DNA of 28,361 nt from IMG/VR virus record IMGVR_UViG_3300031885_000086, positions 1-28,361 of that record; one strand, 5' to 3'. Each line of letters opens with the position of its first letter. Position 1 is the stretch's first letter. The notes below the pieces were generated by a model, which was given only the letters and a program-made list of their open reading frames with translations, made no database searches and was not told the DNA's origin. Positions 5,831 to 28,361 of the stretch are shown piece after piece. The position numbers were made by a program, and so were the translations under genes. Origin of the DNA: a virus.

Positions 5831-6255
5831 GCAAGGACATGATTCCATTTCCATTTAAGGACGGGAAATTTTATTGGACCGTTCTGAAGGACCATGCAGA
5901 TTCCAGAATGGTTTCTGATGGTCTATTCAATCACGATGGTGGTATGGATTACTATGTGGTTGAATCTGATGCTCCCAATGATGGCCTTGCCACTCTGTAT
6001 GCCTATAATAGCAAGGTTGGCTGCTGGCCTCACACATCAGTTGGTCCTGGTGATATTCAGAGAGAAGAAGGCGCTCCTTGGCGTAGAATTTTCACAATTG
6101 ACCATAGACGTGTTGATTTTGAAGATATTAAGCGTCGTCTGCAGGACAATCATCACAGAGGTCACTGTTTACAAGAGCGCGGCGAGAATGTGGATATCAT
6201 TTTCGTCATTATTTATAATGGACCGTGGGATGGGGCGACAGGAAAATTTAAATGA
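5827..6255 (+). CDS. Unknown small protein with distinct codon usage
   Basis: A 142-residue protein of unknown function, starting MSKDMIPFPFKDGKFYW. It is rich in aromatic residues, His, Asp and Gly, with no Cys pairs, membrane segment or known motif that I recognise. Start and stop overlap the neighbours (ATGAG at 5827, ATGA at 6252), so it is a genuine member of the operon. Its codons favour T-ending forms (GAT, GGT, AAT, CCT) more than the C-ending forms used by flanking genes, which hints at more recent acquisition or weaker expression selection. A second frame at 5894-6286 is a shadow. Confidence 0.75.
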   Translation: MSKDMIPFPFKDGKFYWTVLKDHADSRMVSDGLFNHDGGMDYYVVESDAPNDGLATLYAYNSKVGCWPHTSVGPGDIQREEGAPWRRIFTIDHRRVDFEDIKRRLQDNHHRGHCLQERGENVDIIFVIIYNGPWDGATGKFK

Positions 6256-9200
6256 AGCCAGTCACGCACCTTCACTTCCACACTGAATACAGCCTTCAGG
6301 ACAGCCTGGTCCGCATTGACCAGTTGGCTGGACTGATTGAGCGCTTCAATGTCAAGGCGCTGGCCATGACCGACCATGGCACTGTTGATGGCGCTGTCAA
6401 GTTTTATCAAGAGGTCAAGAAGACCAAGGCTGCGCCGCTGCTGGGCTGTGAGTTCTATGTGGTTGATGACCTGAAGGAGCGTGAGAGCAAGCATCGCTAT
6501 CACATGACGGCGCTGGCCAAGAATCGCGACGGCTTCACCAGCATCATGAAGGCGCTGACTGTGGCCAACCTTGATGGGCTTTACTACAAGCCGCGCATTG
6601 ATTGGGAATACATTTTCACTCACATGCACGACATTGTGGTTATGACGGCCTGTCGCGATGGCATATTGAGCCATCCCAACTGGGATAAGCTGCTGCCGAT
6701 ATTCCTGGAGAAATTCGGCGAGGACTTTTATCTTGAAGCCATACTGATAAAAGACCACAAGCCGCAGTTCGGCGTCAATGACATGGTGAAAAGCATCCAG
6801 GAAGGCATGGGCCTGAAGGTTGCTTTCACCAACGACGTTCACTATCTTGAGCCCAAGGACTGGAAGGCTCGCGAGGTCGTGCGTGCCATCAGCTACAATT
6901 TCCGCATTGACCCCAACATGAAGCCGGAGATTGACCAAGCTGATATATATATGAAGGACTATGACCAGATGGTCGCCAGCATGAAGGTCTTTGGCTGGAA
7001 TGATGAAGCGGCGATGACGGCTGTGTGGGACGAGATTGCTGACAAGTGCACTTTTCCATTGGAGGAAAAAGCCGTCAGCATTCCTGTGGCTTATCCTGAA
7101 GCCAAGGCTGACCCTGCAGTCTATTTGCGCAAGGTTTGCGAAGAGGCCTTTGTGGCCGACGACAAACTCTGCAATGACGAGAAGGCACTTGAACGGATGG
7201 AGTATGAGCTAGCCCAAATCATTGAGGGCGGCTTTGCGGAATACTTCCTGCTGGTTCAGGACATGATTCGCTGGGCCAAGACCAATGGCTGTAAGGTTGG
7301 TCCTGGTCGTGGCTCGGTGGGCGGGAGCCTTGTGGCTTTTATCATGGGCATCACCCAGGTCAATCCTCTTGACTATGACTTGGCCTTTGAACGATTCATC
7401 AGCCCTGGTCGTCATGACCTGCCTGACATTGACATTGACTTTGAGGACAGCGAGCGCATCAGGGTCATCGAATATATGCGTGGCAAATACGGCGCGAACA
7501 AGGTGGCGTATGTCTCCACATTCGCCAACACCAAGGGTCGTGGCTCAGTGCGAGATGTTGGTCGAGTGTTCGATGTGCCACTGATTGAGGTTGATAGAGT
7601 TGCCAAGCAAATCCTCGTCCGGTCGGGCGGCGATGCGCGAGCCGACTTTACAGTTGAAGACACAGTGACGCTATTTGAGAATGCAAAGGATTTCCATTCC
7701 AAATATCCGTATGTTATTGACACAGCCAAGGTCATTGAAGGGCTGGTCAAGACCAAGGGCATTCATGCTGCTGGTCTGGTGGTTGACGTCACTGACCTAT
7801 ACAGCGGCGAGAAATGTGTCCTGTCCAGAACCAAGGACGGCGAAATCGCTGTCAATTGGGACAAGAAAGACCTTGAATATATGGGCATGATGAAGATTGA
7901 TGCGCTGGGACTGAAGACACTCAATGTTCTGAGTCGCATAGAGAAGTCTGTCCTTGAGCGCAAAAAAGAGCAAATAGATTTTCTGGCCATTCCCTTTGAT
8001 GAGGAAAAGGTGTTCGACCTGTTCCGCAGAGCCGACAGTGTTGGTGTGTTTCAGTTTGGCTCTGCCGGCATGATGCAGTATCTCAGGGAATTCAAGCCTA
8101 TTAATTTCAAGGAGCTGTATCAGGTCAACGCGCTATGGCGACCAGGCACGCTGCGCAGCGGCCTTGCCAGTGAATTCATCTTGCTGAAGAATGGTCAGAA
8201 GAAGCCAACTTATATCAGTGCGGCTACGAAGAAGATTCTTGAAGAGACTCATGGCATTGTTCTTTTCCAAGAGCAGGTCATGTATATGCTCAACCGGCTG
8301 GGTGATGTTCCTTGGCGCACCACTGACATTATCCGCAAGGTCGTCAGCAAAAGTGAGGGCCAGGAGAAGTTTGAGACCTTTCGTCAGCTGTTCCTTGAAG
8401 GCGTGCGGCGGCTGAATTCTATGACTGAGGAAGAGGCCAACAAAGTTTTCAGTCTGATGAAATACTTCGGCTCGTATGGCTTCAATAAAAGCCACAGCGT
8501 TGAATACACAGTGCTGGGCTATTGGACGATGTGGACAAAGGTTCACTATCCGATTGAATTCTACTGCGCTTCACTGCAACGCGCTGATGACAAAACCGAT
8601 ATCACCGAGCTGCTCAACGATGCCAACCGCCACGGCTTGCAGGCAAAGCTACCAAACATCAACAAGTCTGACATCACATGGCGCATCGAGGACGACAAGA
8701 CACTGCGTGCCGGTCTGGATATTATCAAAGGCATCAGCAGCCGTATAGCTGAGGACATCTTCAATGCGCGGCAGACCTGTGGCGGCCAATTCAAAGACTT
8801 CTGGGAATTCCGCAAGGCTGTGACCAAGCGTATTGTCAATGTCGGCAAGGTCAAGGTGCTGCTGGTGGCCAAGGCCTTCAGCGACATCATGGACGAGACT
8901 ACGCGCAAGAAGCTGTTGGTCTATATCAGTGACAATAAGTCGCTGCCAGAAGACGAGGCTCAGCTGGCTGATGTGGTGGCTGAAACTGAAATCGCCATCG
9001 ACGAGGATGTGTTCAATTTCGAAATGACAGAAGACTATTTCGGCAGCAATAAGAAATTCATCGAAGTGCTGACGCAGAAGTTTGATATCAGAAAGCTCAC
9101 CATGGTGGGCAAGTCAATTGACACAGGCGTATTGCCATTCCACTGGTATCTGGGCAAATTCGATGAAATGAAATACGGCTACAGAACACGAGTTGCCAAG

Positions 9201-10046
9201 AGCGCCGACAGTAAAGGTTATGCCACTGACCTGGGTGGCGTTTATGGCGTGTTCCGCGATGACACATACCATGCCTATGCCACTGTGACAGGTGAGCTTT
9301 ATCACAACCCGAAAAAGAAGGCGCTGATTGAAGAAGCCGCTGGGCGAATTGTCCTAATGTGGGCGAACAAACCTAGCGTCAACGGAAGTTTATTTGCCTC
9401 ACGCATCTATCTTCTCGACGACATCAAGGCTGGTGATTTTGACGACTTGGAAATGGGCGGCATCGTCGGCTTTGATGGCGCGGCGGTTGACACACTGGTG
9501 ACAGAACTCAAGGCTTGTGCCGCTTGCGCAGGCCGCAAGGAGTGTAAAGCACCAGTGCCATTCAGCCCGAGCGCGGTCGGAGGAGCAATGATAGTGGGAG
9601 AGGCACCAGGAGGTGACGAAGACAGAGAAGGAAAAGGCTTTACAGGCAGAGCAGGCAAGACCCTATGGGACACAATGGCCAAGCAGAGGATTGACCGTGA
9701 TTGCGTTCATGTGACCAACGTTCTTAAGTGCCGCCCAAAGGACAACAAAATCACTGACCAGTCTGTAGTCAACTTCTGCGGTGTGCAGTGGCTGCGGAAG
9801 GAGATTGAGGCGACCAGGCCCAAACTCATCCTGTCATTGGGCAAGACGGCGCTGCGCTTCTTCACTGGCAATAAGGACGCCAGCATCATGGAGCGCAATG
9901 GCCAGGTTGAGTGGAACGAGAGAGTCGGCGCTTGGATTGTCTGGGGCGTTCACCCAGCCATGGTTCTGTATGGCGCTGAGAATCAGATTCTGCTTGATAC
10001 GGCGGTCGCTAAGTTCGGCGAAATGTTTTCAAGGCTGTTAGGCTAA
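6252..10046 (+). CDS. DNA polymerase III alpha subunit (DnaE) fused to a family 4 uracil-DNA glycosylase
   Basis: A 1264-residue replicative polymerase with a C-terminal repair domain. The PHP domain comes first (1-200) and keeps all nine expected metal ligands: His8, His10, Asp17, His42, Glu67, His84, Cys134, Asp195, His197. The C-family polymerase core follows, with GPGRGSVGGS, PDIDIDF at 391-397 (catalytic Asp392 and Asp394) and a third Asp550 in KIDALGLKTL. From about 1085 the sequence is a family 4 UDG: Cys1089, Cys1092, Cys1160 and Cys1176 at iron-sulfur ligand spacing, GEAPG at 1116-1120, TNVLKCRPKDN, and HPA at 1234-1236. There is no stop or frameshift between the parts. It should copy the phage genome and excise or sense uracil at the fork. 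The ATG overlaps the upstream stop (ATGA). Both domain assignments are strong; cooperation between them is inferred. Confidence 0.95.
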   Translation: MKPVTHLHFHTEYSLQDSLVRIDQLAGLIERFNVKALAMTDHGTVDGAVKFYQEVKKTKAAPLLGCEFYVVDDLKERESKHRYHMTALAKNRDGFTSIMKALTVANLDGLYYKPRIDWEYIFTHMHDIVVMTACRDGILSHPNWDKLLPIFLEKFGEDFYLEAILIKDHKPQFGVNDMVKSIQEGMGLKVAFTNDVHYLEPKDWKAREVVRAISYNFRIDPNMKPEIDQADIYMKDYDQMVASMKVFGWNDEAAMTAVWDEIADKCTFPLEEKAVSIPVAYPEAKADPAVYLRKVCEEAFVADDKLCNDEKALERMEYELAQIIEGGFAEYFLLVQDMIRWAKTNGCKVGPGRGSVGGSLVAFIMGITQVNPLDYDLAFERFISPGRHDLPDIDIDFEDSERIRVIEYMRGKYGANKVAYVSTFANTKGRGSVRDVGRVFDVPLIEVDRVAKQILVRSGGDARADFTVEDTVTLFENAKDFHSKYPYVIDTAKVIEGLVKTKGIHAAGLVVDVTDLYSGEKCVLSRTKDGEIAVNWDKKDLEYMGMMKIDALGLKTLNVLSRIEKSVLERKKEQIDFLAIPFDEEKVFDLFRRADSVGVFQFGSAGMMQYLREFKPINFKELYQVNALWRPGTLRSGLASEFILLKNGQKKPTYISAATKKILEETHGIVLFQEQVMYMLNRLGDVPWRTTDIIRKVVSKSEGQEKFETFRQLFLEGVRRLNSMTEEEANKVFSLMKYFGSYGFNKSHSVEYTVLGYWTMWTKVHYPIEFYCASLQRADDKTDITELLNDANRHGLQAKLPNINKSDITWRIEDDKTLRAGLDIIKGISSRIAEDIFNARQTCGGQFKDFWEFRKAVTKRIVNVGKVKVLLVAKAFSDIMDETTRKKLLVYISDNKSLPEDEAQLADVVAETEIAIDEDVFNFEMTEDYFGSNKKFIEVLTQKFDIRKLTMVGKSIDTGVLPFHWYLGKFDEMKYGYRTRVAKSADSKGYATDLGGVYGVFRDDTYHAYATVTGELYHNPKKKALIEEAAGRIVLMWANKPSVNGSLFASRIYLLDDIKAGDFDDLEMGGIVGFDGAAVDTLVTELKACAACAGRKECKAPVPFSPSAVGGAMIVGEAPGGDEDREGKGFTGRAGKTLWDTMAKQRIDRDCVHVTNVLKCRPKDNKITDQSVVNFCGVQWLRKEIEATRPKLILSLGKTALRFFTGNKDASIMERNGQVEWNERVGAWIVWGVHPAMVLYGAENQILLDTAVAKFGEMFSRLLG

Positions 10047-10084: not shown

Positions 10085-10156
10085 ATGAGCTCGCAGTTTG
10101 ATGAAGCCTTGGCAAGCCTTCCTAAAGCACTGAAAATAAAGGAGATTACATCGTGA
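10085..10156 (+). CDS. Possible 23-residue leader peptide
   Basis: ATG at 10085 opens a frame of 23 codons beginning MSSQFDEALASLPKALK and ending at TGA 10154-10156, which overlaps the GTG start of the next gene (GTGA), an arrangement typical of real coupled genes in this genome. There is no Shine-Dalgarno sequence, but the ATG lies about 7 bases after a TATAAT box, so the message could be leaderless. It may be a regulatory leader peptide or coincidence. Confidence 0.35.
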   Translation: MSSQFDEALASLPKALKIKEITS

Positions 10157-10614
10157 TAGGAAAACTCGACATTATCATTGGCAGCGAGGTCCACACACTT
10201 GACCCTGATGAGGAGCTCAAGCTCTCCGAAGAGACCATCAACGAGGACCTGAAAAGTCAGCCAGCCCGATACGCTTTTTATGCGGTCATGCAGGAAGCGG
10301 CTGAGGGCGAAGTGGCCGATTCCAAGCTGAATCTGGAAACCACTGAGGCAGCGTTGGATGATGTGTTCAGAACTGAGGCCGCAAAAGCCAACACCAAAAT
10401 CACTGAAGCCAACATCAGTAACAAAATCAAGCTCAACGAGGAATACACAGCTGCCGTCATCGCCTTGAACAAGGCAAAGAAACAAGCGGGAACACTGCGC
10501 GCAATCAAAGAGGCATTTGTCCATCGCAAAGACATGCTCGTGACACTAGCCTCAAACATGCGAGCGCAAGCAGACCCAGAGATTTTCATCAACATGCGTA
10601 AAAAGGAGTCATGA
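10153..10614 (+). CDS. Small coiled-coil protein upstream of SSB, unknown function
   Basis: A 153-residue acidic, Ala/Glu/Lys-rich protein starting at GTG with AAAGGAG 8 bases upstream. After a short N-terminal segment (MIGKLDIIIGSEVHTLDPDEE) the sequence from about 30 to 145 is almost entirely helix-forming, with heptad-like hydrophobic spacing consistent with a coiled coil. Its stop overlaps the SSB start by one base (TGATG), so the two proteins are probably made together. A partner of the SSB or of the recombination machinery is a reasonable guess from position, but I do not recognise the family. Confidence 0.82.
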   Translation: MIGKLDIIIGSEVHTLDPDEELKLSEETINEDLKSQPARYAFYAVMQEAAEGEVADSKLNLETTEAALDDVFRTEAAKANTKITEANISNKIKLNEEYTAAVIALNKAKKQAGTLRAIKEAFVHRKDMLVTLASNMRAQADPEIFINMRKKES

Positions 10615-11681
10615 TGAACGACGTGAAATTTGCTCAACCCGACCAGGAGCAGGACAAGAAGTTCCTGGAAGACGAAGCCAAGCGGAAAGGCTTTGACTGG
10701 AAGAATGTTTTCTGGAAGCCCAAGCCAGACCCTGCCGACAATGTCATCCGCATCATGCCGGCCAGGGTGGGCAGTGGCGCGACCTATTATCTGAAGGTCG
10801 CCAAGCACTTTGTCAATCACGGCGAAAAGGACTATGAGGCCTTCATCTGTATGGAAGAGATGTTCGGCCAGCCGTGTCCTGCCTGCGAACGGCGCAAGGC
10901 TCTCTACGACAGCATCAAGAACGAGAAGGACGAGACCAAGAAGTCCGAGGTCAAGAAATCTGCGGCCAGGTATGGCGTCAAGCGGTTGGGCGTGTTCAAC
11001 GTCATCGACCGCAACGCATACCAGGATTTCAAAGATGGCAAGCTCGACAAGCTGCCCAAGGTGCTGCTGTATGAAGCGCCGCGCAAGGCCATTTGGGAGC
11101 GCATCGTTCGCAATGTTGCGAGCCGTGGTCGCACCGCGAACATTTTCGATTCTTATGACGACAAGGGTGCAGTGGCCAAGGCTGGTCGCGATGTCCTTGT
11201 CAAGTTCTATCCTGATTCTGAGCCCAGCACTATGTACGACGTTCAGTATCTTGACCCTGCAGAACTGGGCACGACCGATGAGGTCAAGCAGTGGTATGAG
11301 CAGATTATCGACCTGGTCGCTGAGAAGATTGCCATTTACAAGCCTGTGGACTACCACGATTGTGAAATCAAGGCATTCGGGACCAAGGAAGAGCGCGATG
11401 AGCTGAAGAAGCGCCGCGCTGAAGAGAACCAAGCCGCTGCCACTGCGGCGCAGCCTGCCGAGGAAACGCAGCCTGCCGAGGAGAAGGAGATTCTCGTTGA
11501 CCCGAATGAGGGCAAAGGCGACGAGACTCCTCAGCCCAAGCCGGTTGCCAAGAAGGAAGAGCCTAAGCCGGTTGCCAAGAAGGAAGAGCCCAAGACTGCC
11601 GCACCTGCCGCTGCTGGCGGCGACTTAAAAGACAGAATCGCAGCGGTCAAGGCTCGAGTGGCTGCTGGTAAAAAGGCATAG
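10614..11681 (+). CDS. Single-stranded DNA-binding protein, T4 gp32-like
   Basis: A 355-residue SSB that should coat single-stranded DNA in replication and recombination. After FDWKNVFWKPKPDPADNVIRIMP, the core holds a zinc motif like that of T4 gp32: His in KHFVNH, then C-x8-C-x2-C in ICMEEMFGQPCPAC. The OB-fold core runs to about residue 260. The C-terminal tail is first acidic (Gln-Pro-Ala-Glu-Glu repeats), then has two perfect nine-residue repeats KPVAKKEEP, and ends basic (LKDRIAAVKARVAAGKKA). Many SSBs end with an acidic tip, so this basic end is unusual. ATG at 10614 is preferred over the adjacent ATG at 10611 because GGAG lies 5 bases before it rather than 2. RecA follows, fitting gp32/UvsX partnership. 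Confidence 0.9.
   Translation: MNDVKFAQPDQEQDKKFLEDEAKRKGFDWKNVFWKPKPDPADNVIRIMPARVGSGATYYLKVAKHFVNHGEKDYEAFICMEEMFGQPCPACERRKALYDSIKNEKDETKKSEVKKSAARYGVKRLGVFNVIDRNAYQDFKDGKLDKLPKVLLYEAPRKAIWERIVRNVASRGRTANIFDSYDDKGAVAKAGRDVLVKFYPDSEPSTMYDVQYLDPAELGTTDEVKQWYEQIIDLVAEKIAIYKPVDYHDCEIKAFGTKEERDELKKRRAEENQAAATAAQPAEETQPAEEKEILVDPNEGKGDETPQPKPVAKKEEPKPVAKKEEPKTAAPAAAGGDLKDRIAAVKARVAAGKKA
11538..11591 (+). repeat. Tandem 27-base repeat within the SSB gene tail
   Basis: Two tandem copies (11538-11564 and 11565-11591) of a 27-base unit beginning AAGCCGGTTGCCAAGAAGG differ only at the last base (T versus C). Each encodes Lys-Pro-Val-Ala-Lys-Lys-Glu-Glu-Pro. A second, shorter repeat encoding Gln-Pro-Ala-Glu-Glu lies just upstream near 11451-11484. 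The in-frame length means copy number could vary without breaking the protein. Confidence 0.85.
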
Positions 11682-11688
11682 CATAGTC

Positions 11689-12627
11689 ATGGACATCCGG
11701 AAGGTGGTCGGGAGCATCGACCTGACAAAACGCTTTGCCGATTTAGCTAAGTTTCGTGTGCCGACAGGCATCAAAGCATTTGACAGAGTATTAAGCGGAG
11801 GCATCCCTGCAGGAAAACTCACTGAGATTTATGGCGATTTTAGTTCTGGCAAAAGCCGCATCGCTGCACACATCATCGCTGAGACTCAAAAACTAGGAGG
11901 GATGGCCGCACTCTTGGACACTGAGCGTTCTCTAGACGGCGGTCTTGTTGAGCTAACAGGCATTGATGTCGAATCATTGGTGTATCCCGACCCCGACCGG
12001 ATGCTCGTCAGTATTGAGGACATATTCAAGCGCATTAAGGAAATCATGCAGTTCCGTGATGAGCACAAGACCGACTTGCTCACAATCGTTTGGGACTCAG
12101 TGGCGGCCACTCCTGGCATGGAAGACCTTGAAAAAGAGATTGGTCGCAATGAGGCTTCAATGCGCCGCGCGAAAGTTATCAGCGATGGCCTGAAACAAAT
12201 CATGGCTGAGGTCTATCGCACTAAGACCTGTCTGATTTTCATCAATCAGATTCGCGACAAGATTGGTGTGATGTATGGTGAAAAAGTTGACACAGTGGGA
12301 GGCAAGGCCTTGAAATTCACTGCCTCTGTTCGTATGCACATCCATCTTGCTGGCAAACTCAAGGACGAGACAACCCTCGAACAAATCGGAGCAAAGGGAC
12401 GGATGGTGGTTGAGAAATGTAAGGTCGGAAAGCCGTTCGGCATGGTTCAATTTGAGATGATGACCGAAGCGCCGATAGACCCATACTCCGGACTGCTTGA
12501 TTACATGGTTCGCCACGGCGAGATTGAGGACGAGGGCAGGGGCTGGTTCAAGTTTCCTGGCGACAAAAAGAATTTCCGCGCTGATAGTTTCCCTGAGATT
12601 TACGAGTCACACCAGAGCTCAAAGTGA
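11689..12627 (+). CDS. RecA/UvsX-like recombinase
   Basis: A 312-residue ATP-dependent strand-exchange protein. Walker A is GDFSSGKS (49-56), Walker B is in LLTIVWDSVAA, and the region LIFINQIRDKIGVMYGEKVDTVGGKALKF corresponds to the RecA loop and switch segment (NQIR-x-K-I-G...GG-x-ALKF). It lacks most of the RecA N-terminal and C-terminal accessory parts, like phage recombinases. The protein would load on SSB-coated ends produced by the gp46/47-type nuclease encoded downstream. The Shine-Dalgarno is weak (AAAAAGG 12 bases upstream). Its stop overlaps the GTG of the exonuclease gene. Subfamily (RecA, UvsX or Sak4) cannot be fixed by eye, although the NQIRDKIG stretch favours RecA-like. Confidence 0.92.
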   Translation: MDIRKVVGSIDLTKRFADLAKFRVPTGIKAFDRVLSGGIPAGKLTEIYGDFSSGKSRIAAHIIAETQKLGGMAALLDTERSLDGGLVELTGIDVESLVYPDPDRMLVSIEDIFKRIKEIMQFRDEHKTDLLTIVWDSVAATPGMEDLEKEIGRNEASMRRAKVISDGLKQIMAEVYRTKTCLIFINQIRDKIGVMYGEKVDTVGGKALKFTASVRMHIHLAGKLKDETTLEQIGAKGRMVVEKCKVGKPFGMVQFEMMTEAPIDPYSGLLDYMVRHGEIEDEGRGWFKFPGDKKNFRADSFPEIYESHQSSK

Positions 12628-13517
12628 AGACTATTATCATTGACGGCAACAACACGGCTTTCCAGGCCTTGGGGAAAGCGCCGCTGTTCTATAAAGGACA
12701 GCGGACTGAGGTGATTAAAATCACCCTGGCGATGATTCGCAGCTATGTCGAGCGCTTCAATCCCGACCAGATAATGGTTGTCTGGGATGGTGGTCGCGAT
12801 GAACGTCGCAAGTCCATCTATCCAGAATACAAAAGAAAAAAGCGTGACTGGACAGAAGCTGAGAAGGTCGAGCGCGACATTCTTTTCACACAGATGAGGC
12901 AGCTGGTTCCGGTGATTCAAGGCCTCTGCCTCTCACAATTCAAAATCAATTATCGTGAGGGCGACGATACGATTTTCACTCTGCTGAGTCAGGAGTGGGC
13001 ACCAGCAGGCGAGCGCATAGTCATCAGCACCGACCAGGACATGTTCCAGCTGCTCCACTATTTTTCAGACGTCAGGATTTTCTCGCCTATCAAAAAACTT
13101 GAAATTGATGCTGATTGGGTTGAGCAGGAATTTGGAATCCCAATCACCCAATTCACCTTTTATAAAGCGCTGGTTGGTGATGCGAGTGACAATATCCCAG
13201 GCATTCGTGGCATTGGTCCAAAAAAGGCTGTGAAGCTAATTGAAGAAATGGGCCATGTCAAAAGCACCAAGGAAGGCAAGAAGCTGATATTGACGGCGCT
13301 GAAGGACGAGGATGAGCTAGCGCGGCAGCTGACGCTGGTGACCTTGATGACAATCCCTGAGGAGGAGATGGCTGAGGGCTGTATCTGTCCTGGCCCAGTC
13401 ACAGAGCTTCAGGAGCATGTGATGAGGTTCGCGGAGCAATACGGCTTTGACCATATCCTTGACCACTTCGACAACTTCGTGGCGCCATTTGAGAAGATGG
13501 CGATGAGGGCGAAATGA
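12624..13517 (+). CDS. 5'-3' exonuclease, FEN/RNase H-like
   Basis: A 297-residue structure-specific nuclease starting at GTG overlapping the RecA stop. FEN-family acidic clusters are in order: IIIDGNNTAF near the N-terminus, VVWDGGRDERRKSIYPEYKRKK (Asp plus the arch Arg/Lys residues), EGDD, STDQD, and GDASDNIPGIRGIGPKKA, the helix-hairpin-helix with its two metal-binding Asp. Phage relatives are T4 RNase H and T5 FEN, which remove RNA primers and flaps during lagging-strand synthesis. Size fits (about 290-305). No polymerase domain is attached, unlike bacterial PolA. It overlaps the next gene by ATGA. Confidence 0.93.
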   Translation: MKTIIIDGNNTAFQALGKAPLFYKGQRTEVIKITLAMIRSYVERFNPDQIMVVWDGGRDERRKSIYPEYKRKKRDWTEAEKVERDILFTQMRQLVPVIQGLCLSQFKINYREGDDTIFTLLSQEWAPAGERIVISTDQDMFQLLHYFSDVRIFSPIKKLEIDADWVEQEFGIPITQFTFYKALVGDASDNIPGIRGIGPKKAVKLIEEMGHVKSTKEGKKLILTALKDEDELARQLTLVTLMTIPEEEMAEGCICPGPVTELQEHVMRFAEQYGFDHILDHFDNFVAPFEKMAMRAK

Positions 13518-26300: not shown

Positions 26301-28361
26301 ATGTGGCTGAGCGCTGAAAAGATACTAGAGATAATTCCTCAGCTAGAGGAGAGCGATAAAGCTATCAGCGGAGCTACAGCTCGTGACCCTATTATGCAGG
26401 GCCAGACGAATATCTTCTTTGGATTGGGCATGAGCCGAGACCAGGACATCGTGAAAGCTGGTTATGAGCTTTATGCCAAGACACTGGCCGAATTCAAGGG
26501 CCAGATGGTTGACCTGATAAGCCGCTATCAAGGCGGTGGGCTGGGGATTGATAAAGCCATTGCCGAATGGAAGGCTATCACAGGCGCCAACTATAAGACG
26601 ATGTTCAAGGCCGGAGCGATGGCTGTGGGCAATCCCTATTATGATAAGATAGGCCTGCCCGACAAAGACCTGGCCTTCATGAGCAAGGCGCGGCGCTTTG
26701 AGAGCTCATTCTTTAAGAAATTTCTGATGGATATTGATAATCCGAATCATGTGGCGGTCCATCCCTATTTGCAGCGCGCAGAGTATTATGCCGAATCAGG
26801 CAAAGCTCAGTTCTTCAATGGTATGGTGAATGGCGCTGGGGATGACCTGGAAATACACTGGGTGCTGAGTGAGGTTCCGGAAGAGCACTGCGAGGACTGT
26901 CCTGTGCTGGCCAGCCGTAAGTGGACGTGGCGCACACTGCCCACGACCCCACGCGCTGGTGATACGAAGTGTATGTTCCGGTGCTATTGCCATTTGGAGT
27001 TCCAGCCTGCACCCTCTACGTCCGCTAGAAGCTATGCTGGCTCTGCCACGCCTCAAGCACTGAGTGCTGAAGGCCGATGGGCGAGCGTGACCGACAAACA
27101 GGGCAACCCTATGGGCGGTGCTCTGGCAGCAGAGATTGACGATATGTTTGGCGCCATGTTCAAAGCTCGTCAAATGATATCTCTGACCGATGGGCCTGAA
27201 AAGGCAGAATGGATAGGCATAAGGCGACAAATCAATAAAGGCATCATAGACCGTGCTGGGCAGGACTACCGAGCGCTGCCCAACGTCAGTGTCAGCCAGT
27301 TGGAGATTGCAGCCAAGGCCGCCAGTGGAATGGGCGCGGGTCTAGTTTCAGATATAGGTGGACTGCGTGCCGGCGCTGAGGCTGTGTTCCTGCGCGGCAA
27401 CTTCTACACCGCAGGTATCGTCAGCGAACTGGGTGGGGCCAAATACCTGACCGACACCAAGGGCAACCGCCACCAACTCAACGACGAGACCGACATCGTC
27501 TTCACTGCCAAGGAACGGCTCAACCCCATTGACCCTCGCGAGAGGAATGTGGCTAAGTTGCTCAGAAAGAGTGTGTTCGGGACTGAGCAGCTGTATGATG
27601 AATTCCTGGTCTATTATGATGCGGCCAAGGCGGCTAATTCTACCATCCCTTATCAGAGGGCATGGGTGGCTTTTCGGCAGCGCTGGCAGGAGACCGGCGT
27701 GGGCTGGGTGATGAAGCGCACCAATGAGGCGCTTGAGGCGCTGGTGAGTGAGCTACTCGAAGGCGGTGCTGGGAGTGGTAACTTTGACCATGCCGGCAGG
27801 CCTGGGGAAGTCGGCGGCTCTGCTCCGGAAGGCGAAGTTAACACCGACACCACCAGTCCTGACCAAACCTATTTGCCCGACAGGGCCGAAGTTGATGTGG
27901 GCATTGGCACACGCGAAGCTCACGGAGAGTCGGTGAAGGAATTTCTGGTTGGCCTATACACCACCTCCTCAGGCAATTCACCAGCTTGGCAGGATGTGGC
28001 TGGCAAGACATACGGCATTGATGCGGCGCAACAGGCGCTGGCTTTTGCTGACCCTGACGCTATCGGCAGCATCGCACGCAACCTGCAGTGGGAAGAAGAA
28101 ATGCGCCGTGGTGATGTTGATGGCTCTCGCATGTGGCATAGCCTGACTGATGAAGAGCATGCGATGTGGATGAGCAGGGCATACAGCAAGGTGCTAGAAG
28201 AGATTCGTGAGCGGCTTGGATACAGATGGAATTCCTCTGTGGTCAATCCGCAGGCTGCTGATAAACAGATTCTGGCACTGAGGGACGAAGCCAACGCTGT
28301 GGCCACCGAAGGCGCTGACCTGCATCGTGGGATGACGATAAGGCGCGAACTGGCCGATGAG
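26301..28361 (+). CDS. MuF-type minor head protein with a probable C-terminal ADP-ribosyltransferase domain (partial)
   Basis: The frame from ATG 26301 (GAGG 6 bases upstream) stays open to the window edge, 687 codons without a stop. Residues 1-240 resemble phage head-morphogenesis MuF proteins: a helical part, then HWVLSEVPEEHCEDCPVLA, RTLPTTPRAGDTKCMFRCYCHLEF, with Cys pairs that could bind zinc. A helical middle follows. At about 488-506 is GSGNFDHAGRPGEVGGS, a linker I recall from many phage head proteins that precedes effector domains. The next segment (about 540-676) ends in ADLHRGMTIRRE, whose His-Arg-Gly (Arg676) looks like the start of an ADP-ribosyltransferase fold. The remaining catalytic residues would lie past the window. 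Such proteins can be injected with the DNA and modify host proteins. Confidence 0.85.
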   Translation, partial: MWLSAEKILEIIPQLEESDKAISGATARDPIMQGQTNIFFGLGMSRDQDIVKAGYELYAKTLAEFKGQMVDLISRYQGGGLGIDKAIAEWKAITGANYKTMFKAGAMAVGNPYYDKIGLPDKDLAFMSKARRFESSFFKKFLMDIDNPNHVAVHPYLQRAEYYAESGKAQFFNGMVNGAGDDLEIHWVLSEVPEEHCEDCPVLASRKWTWRTLPTTPRAGDTKCMFRCYCHLEFQPAPSTSARSYAGSATPQALSAEGRWASVTDKQGNPMGGALAAEIDDMFGAMFKARQMISLTDGPEKAEWIGIRRQINKGIIDRAGQDYRALPNVSVSQLEIAAKAASGMGAGLVSDIGGLRAGAEAVFLRGNFYTAGIVSELGGAKYLTDTKGNRHQLNDETDIVFTAKERLNPIDPRERNVAKLLRKSVFGTEQLYDEFLVYYDAAKAANSTIPYQRAWVAFRQRWQETGVGWVMKRTNEALEALVSELLEGGAGSGNFDHAGRPGEVGGSAPEGEVNTDTTSPDQTYLPDRAEVDVGIGTREAHGESVKEFLVGLYTTSSGNSPAWQDVAGKTYGIDAAQQALAFADPDAIGSIARNLQWEEEMRRGDVDGSRMWHSLTDEEHAMWMSRAYSKVLEEIRERLGYRWNSSVVNPQAADKQILALRDEANAVATEGADLHRGMTIRRELADE

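What the first reader, a model, noticed from the sequence alone, without database searches (positions are those of the whole stretch)
6252..10046. DnaE replicative polymerase fused to a family 4 uracil-DNA glycosylase
One uninterrupted frame contains the complete PHP and C-family polymerase core and, from about residue 1085, a UDG with four Cys at C-x2-C, x67, C-x15-C spacing, GEAPG and HPA motifs. Family 4 UDG is linked by name to a polymerase because the SPO1 phage polymerase carries a related domain attached to an A-type enzyme. The same idea on an unrelated C-family polymerase and at the other end would be convergent. The tether could remove or stall at uracil in the template during copying, which fits the nearby ThyX and nucleotidases.
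Basis: partly seen in the sequence, partly recalled or inferred. Interest (0 to 1): 0.75.

Follow-up and report, generated by a model that had tools for sequence, protein, structure and literature searches.

The report
Phage replicase with built-in uracil remover
A phage's own DNA-copying enzyme carries, as part of the same protein, an apparently working enzyme that cuts uracil out of DNA; the joined layout was noted once before in passing, but it proves widespread in phages and mostly intact at its active site, so it can now be tested whether copying and uracil removal are coupled.

Summary
Window 6252-10046 (+) is one 1264-codon frame: PHP, C-family polymerase core, HhH, a predicted OB fold, then a family 4 uracil-DNA glycosylase (UDG) from residue ~1085. 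Two IMG/VR relatives (67-69% identical) keep it, and UDG dN/dS in four close relative pairs is 0.05-0.12, so it is no sequencing artefact. I found 45 distinct DnaE+UDG proteins; 37 keep all four Fe-S cysteines and the key pocket residues. The UDG takes the place of the tau-binding C-terminal domain, in a conserved cassette (DnaE-UDG, ~155-aa protein, gp32-like SSB, RecA). The architecture is not new: Timinskas et al. (PMC3919608) mention a DnaE variant with OB and CTD replaced by UDG. But phages with the OB-less form and a name that I could read (SSU5, nickie, RHEph10) have a wrecked UDG site. New are a broad, mostly intact clade and an OB-retaining form, to which the window belongs. Most likely it is an active, fork-tethered UDG whose fold also has a non-catalytic role (several lineages lost catalysis but kept the domain). 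Uracil excision during copying is inferred, not shown. ThyX, dUTPase and AP endonuclease do not consistently accompany it.

The parts
6252..10046 (+). DnaE-UDG fusion gene, 1264 aa, stop codon included
   Evidence: conserved in L002, L003
6267..6686 (+). PHP domain (residues 6-145); the nine metal-site residues checked (some lie beyond the Pfam match) are present and conserved in 34 of 35 fused proteins, so a PHP exonuclease is predicted
7122..8411 (+). C-family polymerase core and finger (residues 291-720), with catalytic Asp 394, 396 and 550 conserved in 35 of 35
8640..8897 (+). helix-hairpin-helix HHH_6 (residues 797-882)
9132..9413 (+). predicted OB fold (about residues 961-1054), retained here and apparently lost in the short-linker variant
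   Evidence: the structural match to Taq DnaE runs to model residue 1006 = window residue 1070; linker lengths
9504..10043 (+). family 4 uracil-DNA glycosylase domain (residues 1085-1264); E1117, E1123, F1130, N1156, N1165, H1234 match Tth E41, E47, F54, N80, N89, H155; Fe-S ligands C1089, C1092, C1160, C1176
10153..10614 (+). 153-aa protein of unknown function (phrog_2058), a relative of which lies downstream of the fusion in 37 of 46 loci
10611..11681 (+). gp32-like single-strand DNA-binding protein, downstream in 35 of 46 loci
11689..12627 (+). RecA/UvsX-like recombinase, a neighbour in 30 of 46 loci
12624..13517 (+). 5'-3' exonuclease, a neighbour in 12 of 46 loci

Best explanation
It is the replicative polymerase of a phage with a T4-like portal, in which the C-terminal, tau-binding domain of DnaE has been replaced by a family 4 UDG while the OB fold is kept. 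Shown by computation: a single protein, intact polymerase and PHP sites, intact UDG active site and Fe-S ligands, purifying selection, a widespread phage clade, a conserved replication cassette. Inferred: the UDG is catalytically active and is held by the OB fold near DNA at the fork, where it removes uracil (from cytosine deamination or dUTP) from template or newly made DNA; the abasic sites are then handled by recombination functions (RecA and SbcCD are encoded nearby). Also inferred: the UDG fold has a second, non-catalytic job (DNA holding or replisome contact in place of the lost tau-binding domain), because several lineages have lost the catalytic residues and kept the domain.
For: Domain and fold matches. 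Active-site residues defined by mutagenesis of Tth UDGa (PMC5387724) are all present. 37 of 45 fused proteins keep four Cys, E/Q41, E/D47, N80 and H155; 33 with Glu at both positions (counted from the table). In the 38-row C-terminal alignment (A6) every invariant column lies in the UDG domain, and 12 of the 13 nearly invariant ones do. UDG dN/dS 0.05-0.12; UDG and DnaE parts of L002/L003 give 0.10 and 0.09. DnaE-core tree: 37 of 40 rows in one clade are fused; of the three exceptions one (L159) is a fusion broken by a frame change. Cassette: the ~155-aa neighbour is in 37 of 41 fused but only 4 of 67 unfused loci, three of these from the same clade. Domain kept after loss of catalysis: nickie, RHEph10, SSU5, Cupriavidus phage-plasmid, L040, and separately L053 and L148. 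CTD binds tau (PMC3919608).
Against: No assay; conserved residues do not prove turnover. The motif 3 Asn (Tth N89; N89A lowers k2/Km about 7-fold in PMC5387724) is Ser or Thr in 24 fused proteins, though not in the window. No consistent AP endonuclease, dUTPase or ThyX partner in 19 records (records may be fragments). Excising uracil from single-stranded template at a fork could block copying. The position of the UDG relative to the polymerase active site was not resolved (pTM 0.73, weaker confidence around the OB fold). Sampling was seeded with fused proteins, so frequencies are not population estimates.
Confidence: 0.55

Rival explanations
1. The UDG domain is mainly a structural DNA-holding or processivity module, like vaccinia D4 in its holoenzyme; excision is incidental at the fork.
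For: The domain outlives its catalytic residues in several lineages. It occupies the place of the tau-binding CTD. No clamp was detected in the window, and only weak clamp-like hits in four relatives. Vaccinia D4 is a precedent for a UDG as processivity factor (PMC10253040).
Against: In most lineages the most conserved residues of the whole C-terminal region are the Fe-S and catalytic ones, which a pure scaffold would not need. Some relatives may encode a clamp.
Confidence: 0.25
2. The domain senses or binds uracil and stalls the polymerase, as archaeal Pol-B does, rather than cutting it out.
For: Pocket residues E47, N80, H155 are conserved; template-uracil stalling is known in archaeal Pol-B and Pol-D (PMC4942837).
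Against: H155, whose main effect in Tth UDGa is on catalysis rather than binding, is conserved too; family 4 UDGs are efficient enzymes.
Confidence: 0.1
3. The UDG acts on other DNA (host chromosome, or uracil-DNA of rival phages) and is only parked on the polymerase.
For: Uracil-DNA phages exist (PMC7824862).
Against: Fusion to a replicase inside a replication cassette gives no reason for such targeting; no defence-family match.
Confidence: 0.04
4. Artefact: two genes joined by a sequencing or assembly error.
For: None found.
Against: Same frame and junction in independent contigs down to about 30-40% identity; codon-level purifying selection.
Confidence: 0.01

Closest known systems
[quoted passage not shown]
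   Same: PHP-Pol3-HhH followed by a C-terminal PF03167 UDG domain in a C-family polymerase
   Different: There OB and CTD are both replaced; here OB is kept. A phage of seemingly that type that I could read (Salmonella phage SSU5, L215) has lost E41, N80, H155 and the cysteines, while the window keeps them all. That the published proteins are close to SSU5's is my inference; I did not read them.
Nickievirus and Rhizobium RHEph10-type phage DnaE
   Same: C-terminal UDG-like domain, same gene cassette
   Different: UDG catalytic residues and Fe-S ligands largely lost, short linker without room for OB; PHP residues degenerate in RHEph10 and by eye in nickie
A-family phage polymerases with N-terminal UDG (SPO1 gp31, PaBG gp205 in PMC7412058, phiLo PDB 9QHS)
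   Same: family 4-like UDG covalently joined to a phage polymerase
   Different: unrelated polymerase family, other terminus, UDGs on the other side of a branch in the UDG tree (PolA-fused UDGs of viral contigs); SPO1's UDG is degenerate, phiLo's keeps the motifs
Thermus thermophilus UDGa (1UI0), free-standing family 4 UDG
   Same: fold (Z 25.8), four-Cys spacing, pocket and motif residues (Ala for Gly at position 42)
   Different: free-standing; the fused UDGs have a conserved Trp (W1221, 37 of 45) and mostly Tyr or His where the other UDGs in the alignment have Arg after HPA
Vaccinia D4/A20 polymerase cofactor
   Same: a UDG built into a viral replication polymerase complex
   Different: a different UDG family (own knowledge), separate subunit, unrelated polymerase

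Membership tests
Family 4 uracil-DNA glycosylase | four Cys Fe-S ligands at C-x2-C-x67-C-x15-C | tested here: met
   C1089, C1092, C1160, C1176; same spacing as 1UI0. Cluster binding itself not testable.
Family 4 uracil-DNA glycosylase | motif 1 GE(G/A)PG, motif 2 HP(A/S), and pocket residues E41, E47, F54, N80, N89, H155 | tested here: met
Family 4 uracil-DNA glycosylase | fold | tested here: met
   Z 25.8, 1.6 A over 184 residues to 1UI0
Family 4 uracil-DNA glycosylase | uracil excision from ss and ds DNA | not testable with these tools
   needs an assay
UdgX | KRRIH loop and Gln in motif A (GEQPG) | tested here: not met
   motif is GEAPG and no KRRIH occurs in the sequence; UdgX definition from the abstract of PMC10359453
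DnaE (C-family) polymerase | PHP, Pol3 core with three catalytic Asp, HhH | tested here: met
DnaE (C-family) polymerase | OB fold after HhH | tested here: met
   by predicted fold only; Taq DnaE match to model residue 1006; no Pfam OB hit
DnaE1 replicase | C-terminal tau-binding domain | tested here: not met
   UDG stands in its place
DnaEX-UDG of PMC3919608 | OB and CTD both replaced by UDG | tested here: not met
   OB predicted present; linker 245 aa against 56-129 aa in the short form

The most novel reading that the evidence does not exclude
A large phage clade runs a replicase that excises uracil in cis while copying, a built-in fork-coupled start of base excision, with the glycosylase taking the place of the tau-binding domain as a DNA-tethering element.
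Probability: 0.3. Interest if true: 0.75.

Novelty: new variant of a known kind. Interest (0 to 1): 0.5.

Why it matters
Whether replication and uracil removal are physically coupled is usually asked with separate proteins. Here they are one polypeptide, with natural relatives that range from intact to catalytically dead, which gives ready-made controls. It also shows glycosylases joined to polymerases repeatedly: A-family N-terminal, C-family C-terminal (apparently at least twice) and C-family N-terminal.

Tried and rejected
Sequencing-error junction: rejected. 'Fits ThyX and nucleotidases': not general. BER partner AP endonuclease PF01261: one sub-threshold hit in 19 records. Clamp PF02768: none over cut-off in 19 records, weak clamp-like hits in four neighbours; exonuclease III-type AP endonucleases and T4-type clamps were not searched. 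A genome-contig scan with the full-length profile gave no relatives; with the UDG profile only one fused hit, a 4 kb contig in a Syntrophaceae MAG, which may be viral. No match in the defence library, no tRNA or Rfam hits in the window. Literature searches for a DnaE-UDG fusion in phages found nothing beyond PMC3919608, but only open papers are held. A second UDG in the same phage: none, 18 of 18 records with the fusion show a single PF03167 match. The UDG tree's DnaE branch is not decisive (84.7), and the tree is short with long branches. The geometry of UDG and polymerase could not be measured (no coordinates given).

Full report
What is there. Window 6252-10046 (+) encodes one 1264-aa protein. 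Pfam finds PHP, polymerase core, finger, HhH and, at 1113-1243, UDG. phmmer against solved structures gives DnaE structures for the first ~880 residues and family 4 UDGs for about 1082-1256. The cysteine spacing equals Thermus UDGa, and the residues that mutagenesis showed to matter there (E41, E47, F54, N80, N89, H155; PMC5387724) are E1117, E1123, F1130, N1156, N1165, H1234; position 42 is Ala, which that paper gives as a normal family 4 state. The nine PHP metal residues checked and three catalytic Asp are present.

Not an artefact. Two IMG/VR contigs carry the same protein at 69% and 67% identity. UDG dN/dS is 0.10 in L002/L003 (0.09 for the DnaE part), and 0.05, 0.12 and 0.11 in three other close pairs.

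Structure. A 430-aa C-terminal model (pLDDT 90) shows helices, a beta-rich OB-like fold and a UDG; the UDG matches 1UI0 at Z 25.8. A 1200-aa model (residues 65-1264; pLDDT 86, pTM 0.73) matches DnaE structures at Z 32-45, to Taq DnaE as far as model residue 1006 (window 1070), and family 4 UDG from model residue 1010-1014 on. So the UDG begins where the tau-binding CTD would.

How widespread. Profile scans of viral contigs and reading of all loci gave 45 distinct DnaE+UDG proteins: 43 of the main C-terminal type, one separate C-terminal case (L156, whose UDG groups with a PolA-fused one) and one N-terminal case (L063). Four further UDGs in the same clade (L135, L137, L138, L142) lie close to the end of the stretch held, and L159 is a fusion broken by a frame change. 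Counts are not frequencies, because the queries were themselves fused.

Evolution. On a DnaE-core tree one clade of 40 holds 37 fused proteins, L159, and the near-identical L043/L044, which keep the ~155-aa neighbour (L043 also gp32) and seem to have lost the UDG. nickie, RHEph10 and L040 lie elsewhere, among unfused DnaEs. Their UDG-like domains are nearest to DnaE-fused UDGs in the UDG tree, and they share the cassette, so descent from the same fusion is likely but not shown. Linker length is bimodal: 56-129 aa (28 proteins) and 162-294 aa (17, window included); the deeper branches of the main clade are mostly of the long form, so OB loss after UDG gain is the simpler reading.

Is it active? 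37 of 45 keep four Cys, E/Q41, E/D47, N80 and H155 (33 with Glu at both positions); H155 is kept in 38 of 43 readable cases. The most conserved columns in the whole C-terminal alignment are the Fe-S and active-site ones. Motif 3 Asn is relaxed (N 13, S 12, T 12). Losses: nickie, Nican01, RHEph10, RHph_Y2_11, SSU5, the Cupriavidus phage-plasmid, L040, and separately L053 and L148. So catalysis is usually kept, sometimes lost, with the domain retained: two roles are the simplest reading.

Context. The window is a phage segment with DnaB-like helicase, HAD and HD nucleotidases, ThyX, the fusion, gp32-like SSB, RecA, 5'-3' exonuclease, SbcCD, a primase-like protein, a large-terminase-like protein and a T4-like portal. 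Relatives of the ~155-aa protein, gp32 and RecA are neighbours in 37, 35 and 30 of 46 loci. ThyX, dUTPase and AP endonuclease are not regular companions.

What is known. PMC3919608 reports a DnaE variant in strains of Y. pestis and S. enterica in which OB and CTD are replaced by this UDG. I did not fetch a Y. pestis plasmid; the phage SSU5 stands in, and its domain is degenerate. A-family polymerases with N-terminal UDG are known (PMC7412058; PDB 9QHS). Vaccinia D4 is the functional parallel for a UDG inside a replicase (PMC10253040).

Verdict. Real, conserved, probably active, and a new variant of a described but little noticed architecture. The mechanism at the fork is inferred.

Noticed in passing
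L049 and L136, UDG motif 1: Motif 1 reads GQDPG, the Gln-Asp doublet of family 1 UNG, inside DnaE-fused family 4-type UDGs: a natural case of the doublet that PMC5387724 made by mutation.
   Followed up: partly
L012:7989-12896, L047:2409-7772: Inteins at the DnaE FGxYGFNKSHS motif; L012 seems to have two mini-inteins four residues apart (FGAY / SFNR / SHSVSY).
   Followed up: partly
L063:5842-9594: UDG-like domain at the N-terminus of a DnaE (PF03167 at 47-204, E 5e-15), with GQNP, ITN and HPA: another way of joining the two.
   Followed up: partly
L156:2-1963: C-terminal DnaE-UDG whose UDG groups with a PolA-fused one (support 96): apparently an independent fusion.
   Followed up: partly
L083, L102, L106: Free-standing UDG genes just upstream of dnaE; in L102 and L106 DnaE is split into PHP and polymerase genes and the UDG lacks the usual N-terminal Cys pair.
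   Followed up: no
window 10153-10614: Unknown ~155-aa protein (phrog_2058) downstream of the fusion in 37 of 46 loci and rare beside unfused DnaE; perhaps a partner.
   Followed up: partly
L045:77-1135, L125:1549-2514: TET-associated glycosyltransferase and radical SAM genes upstream of the fusion, hinting at modified DNA in some of these phages.
   Followed up: no
window 26301-28361: Large open-ended ORF (687 aa so far) after the portal gene with only weak family matches.
   Followed up: no
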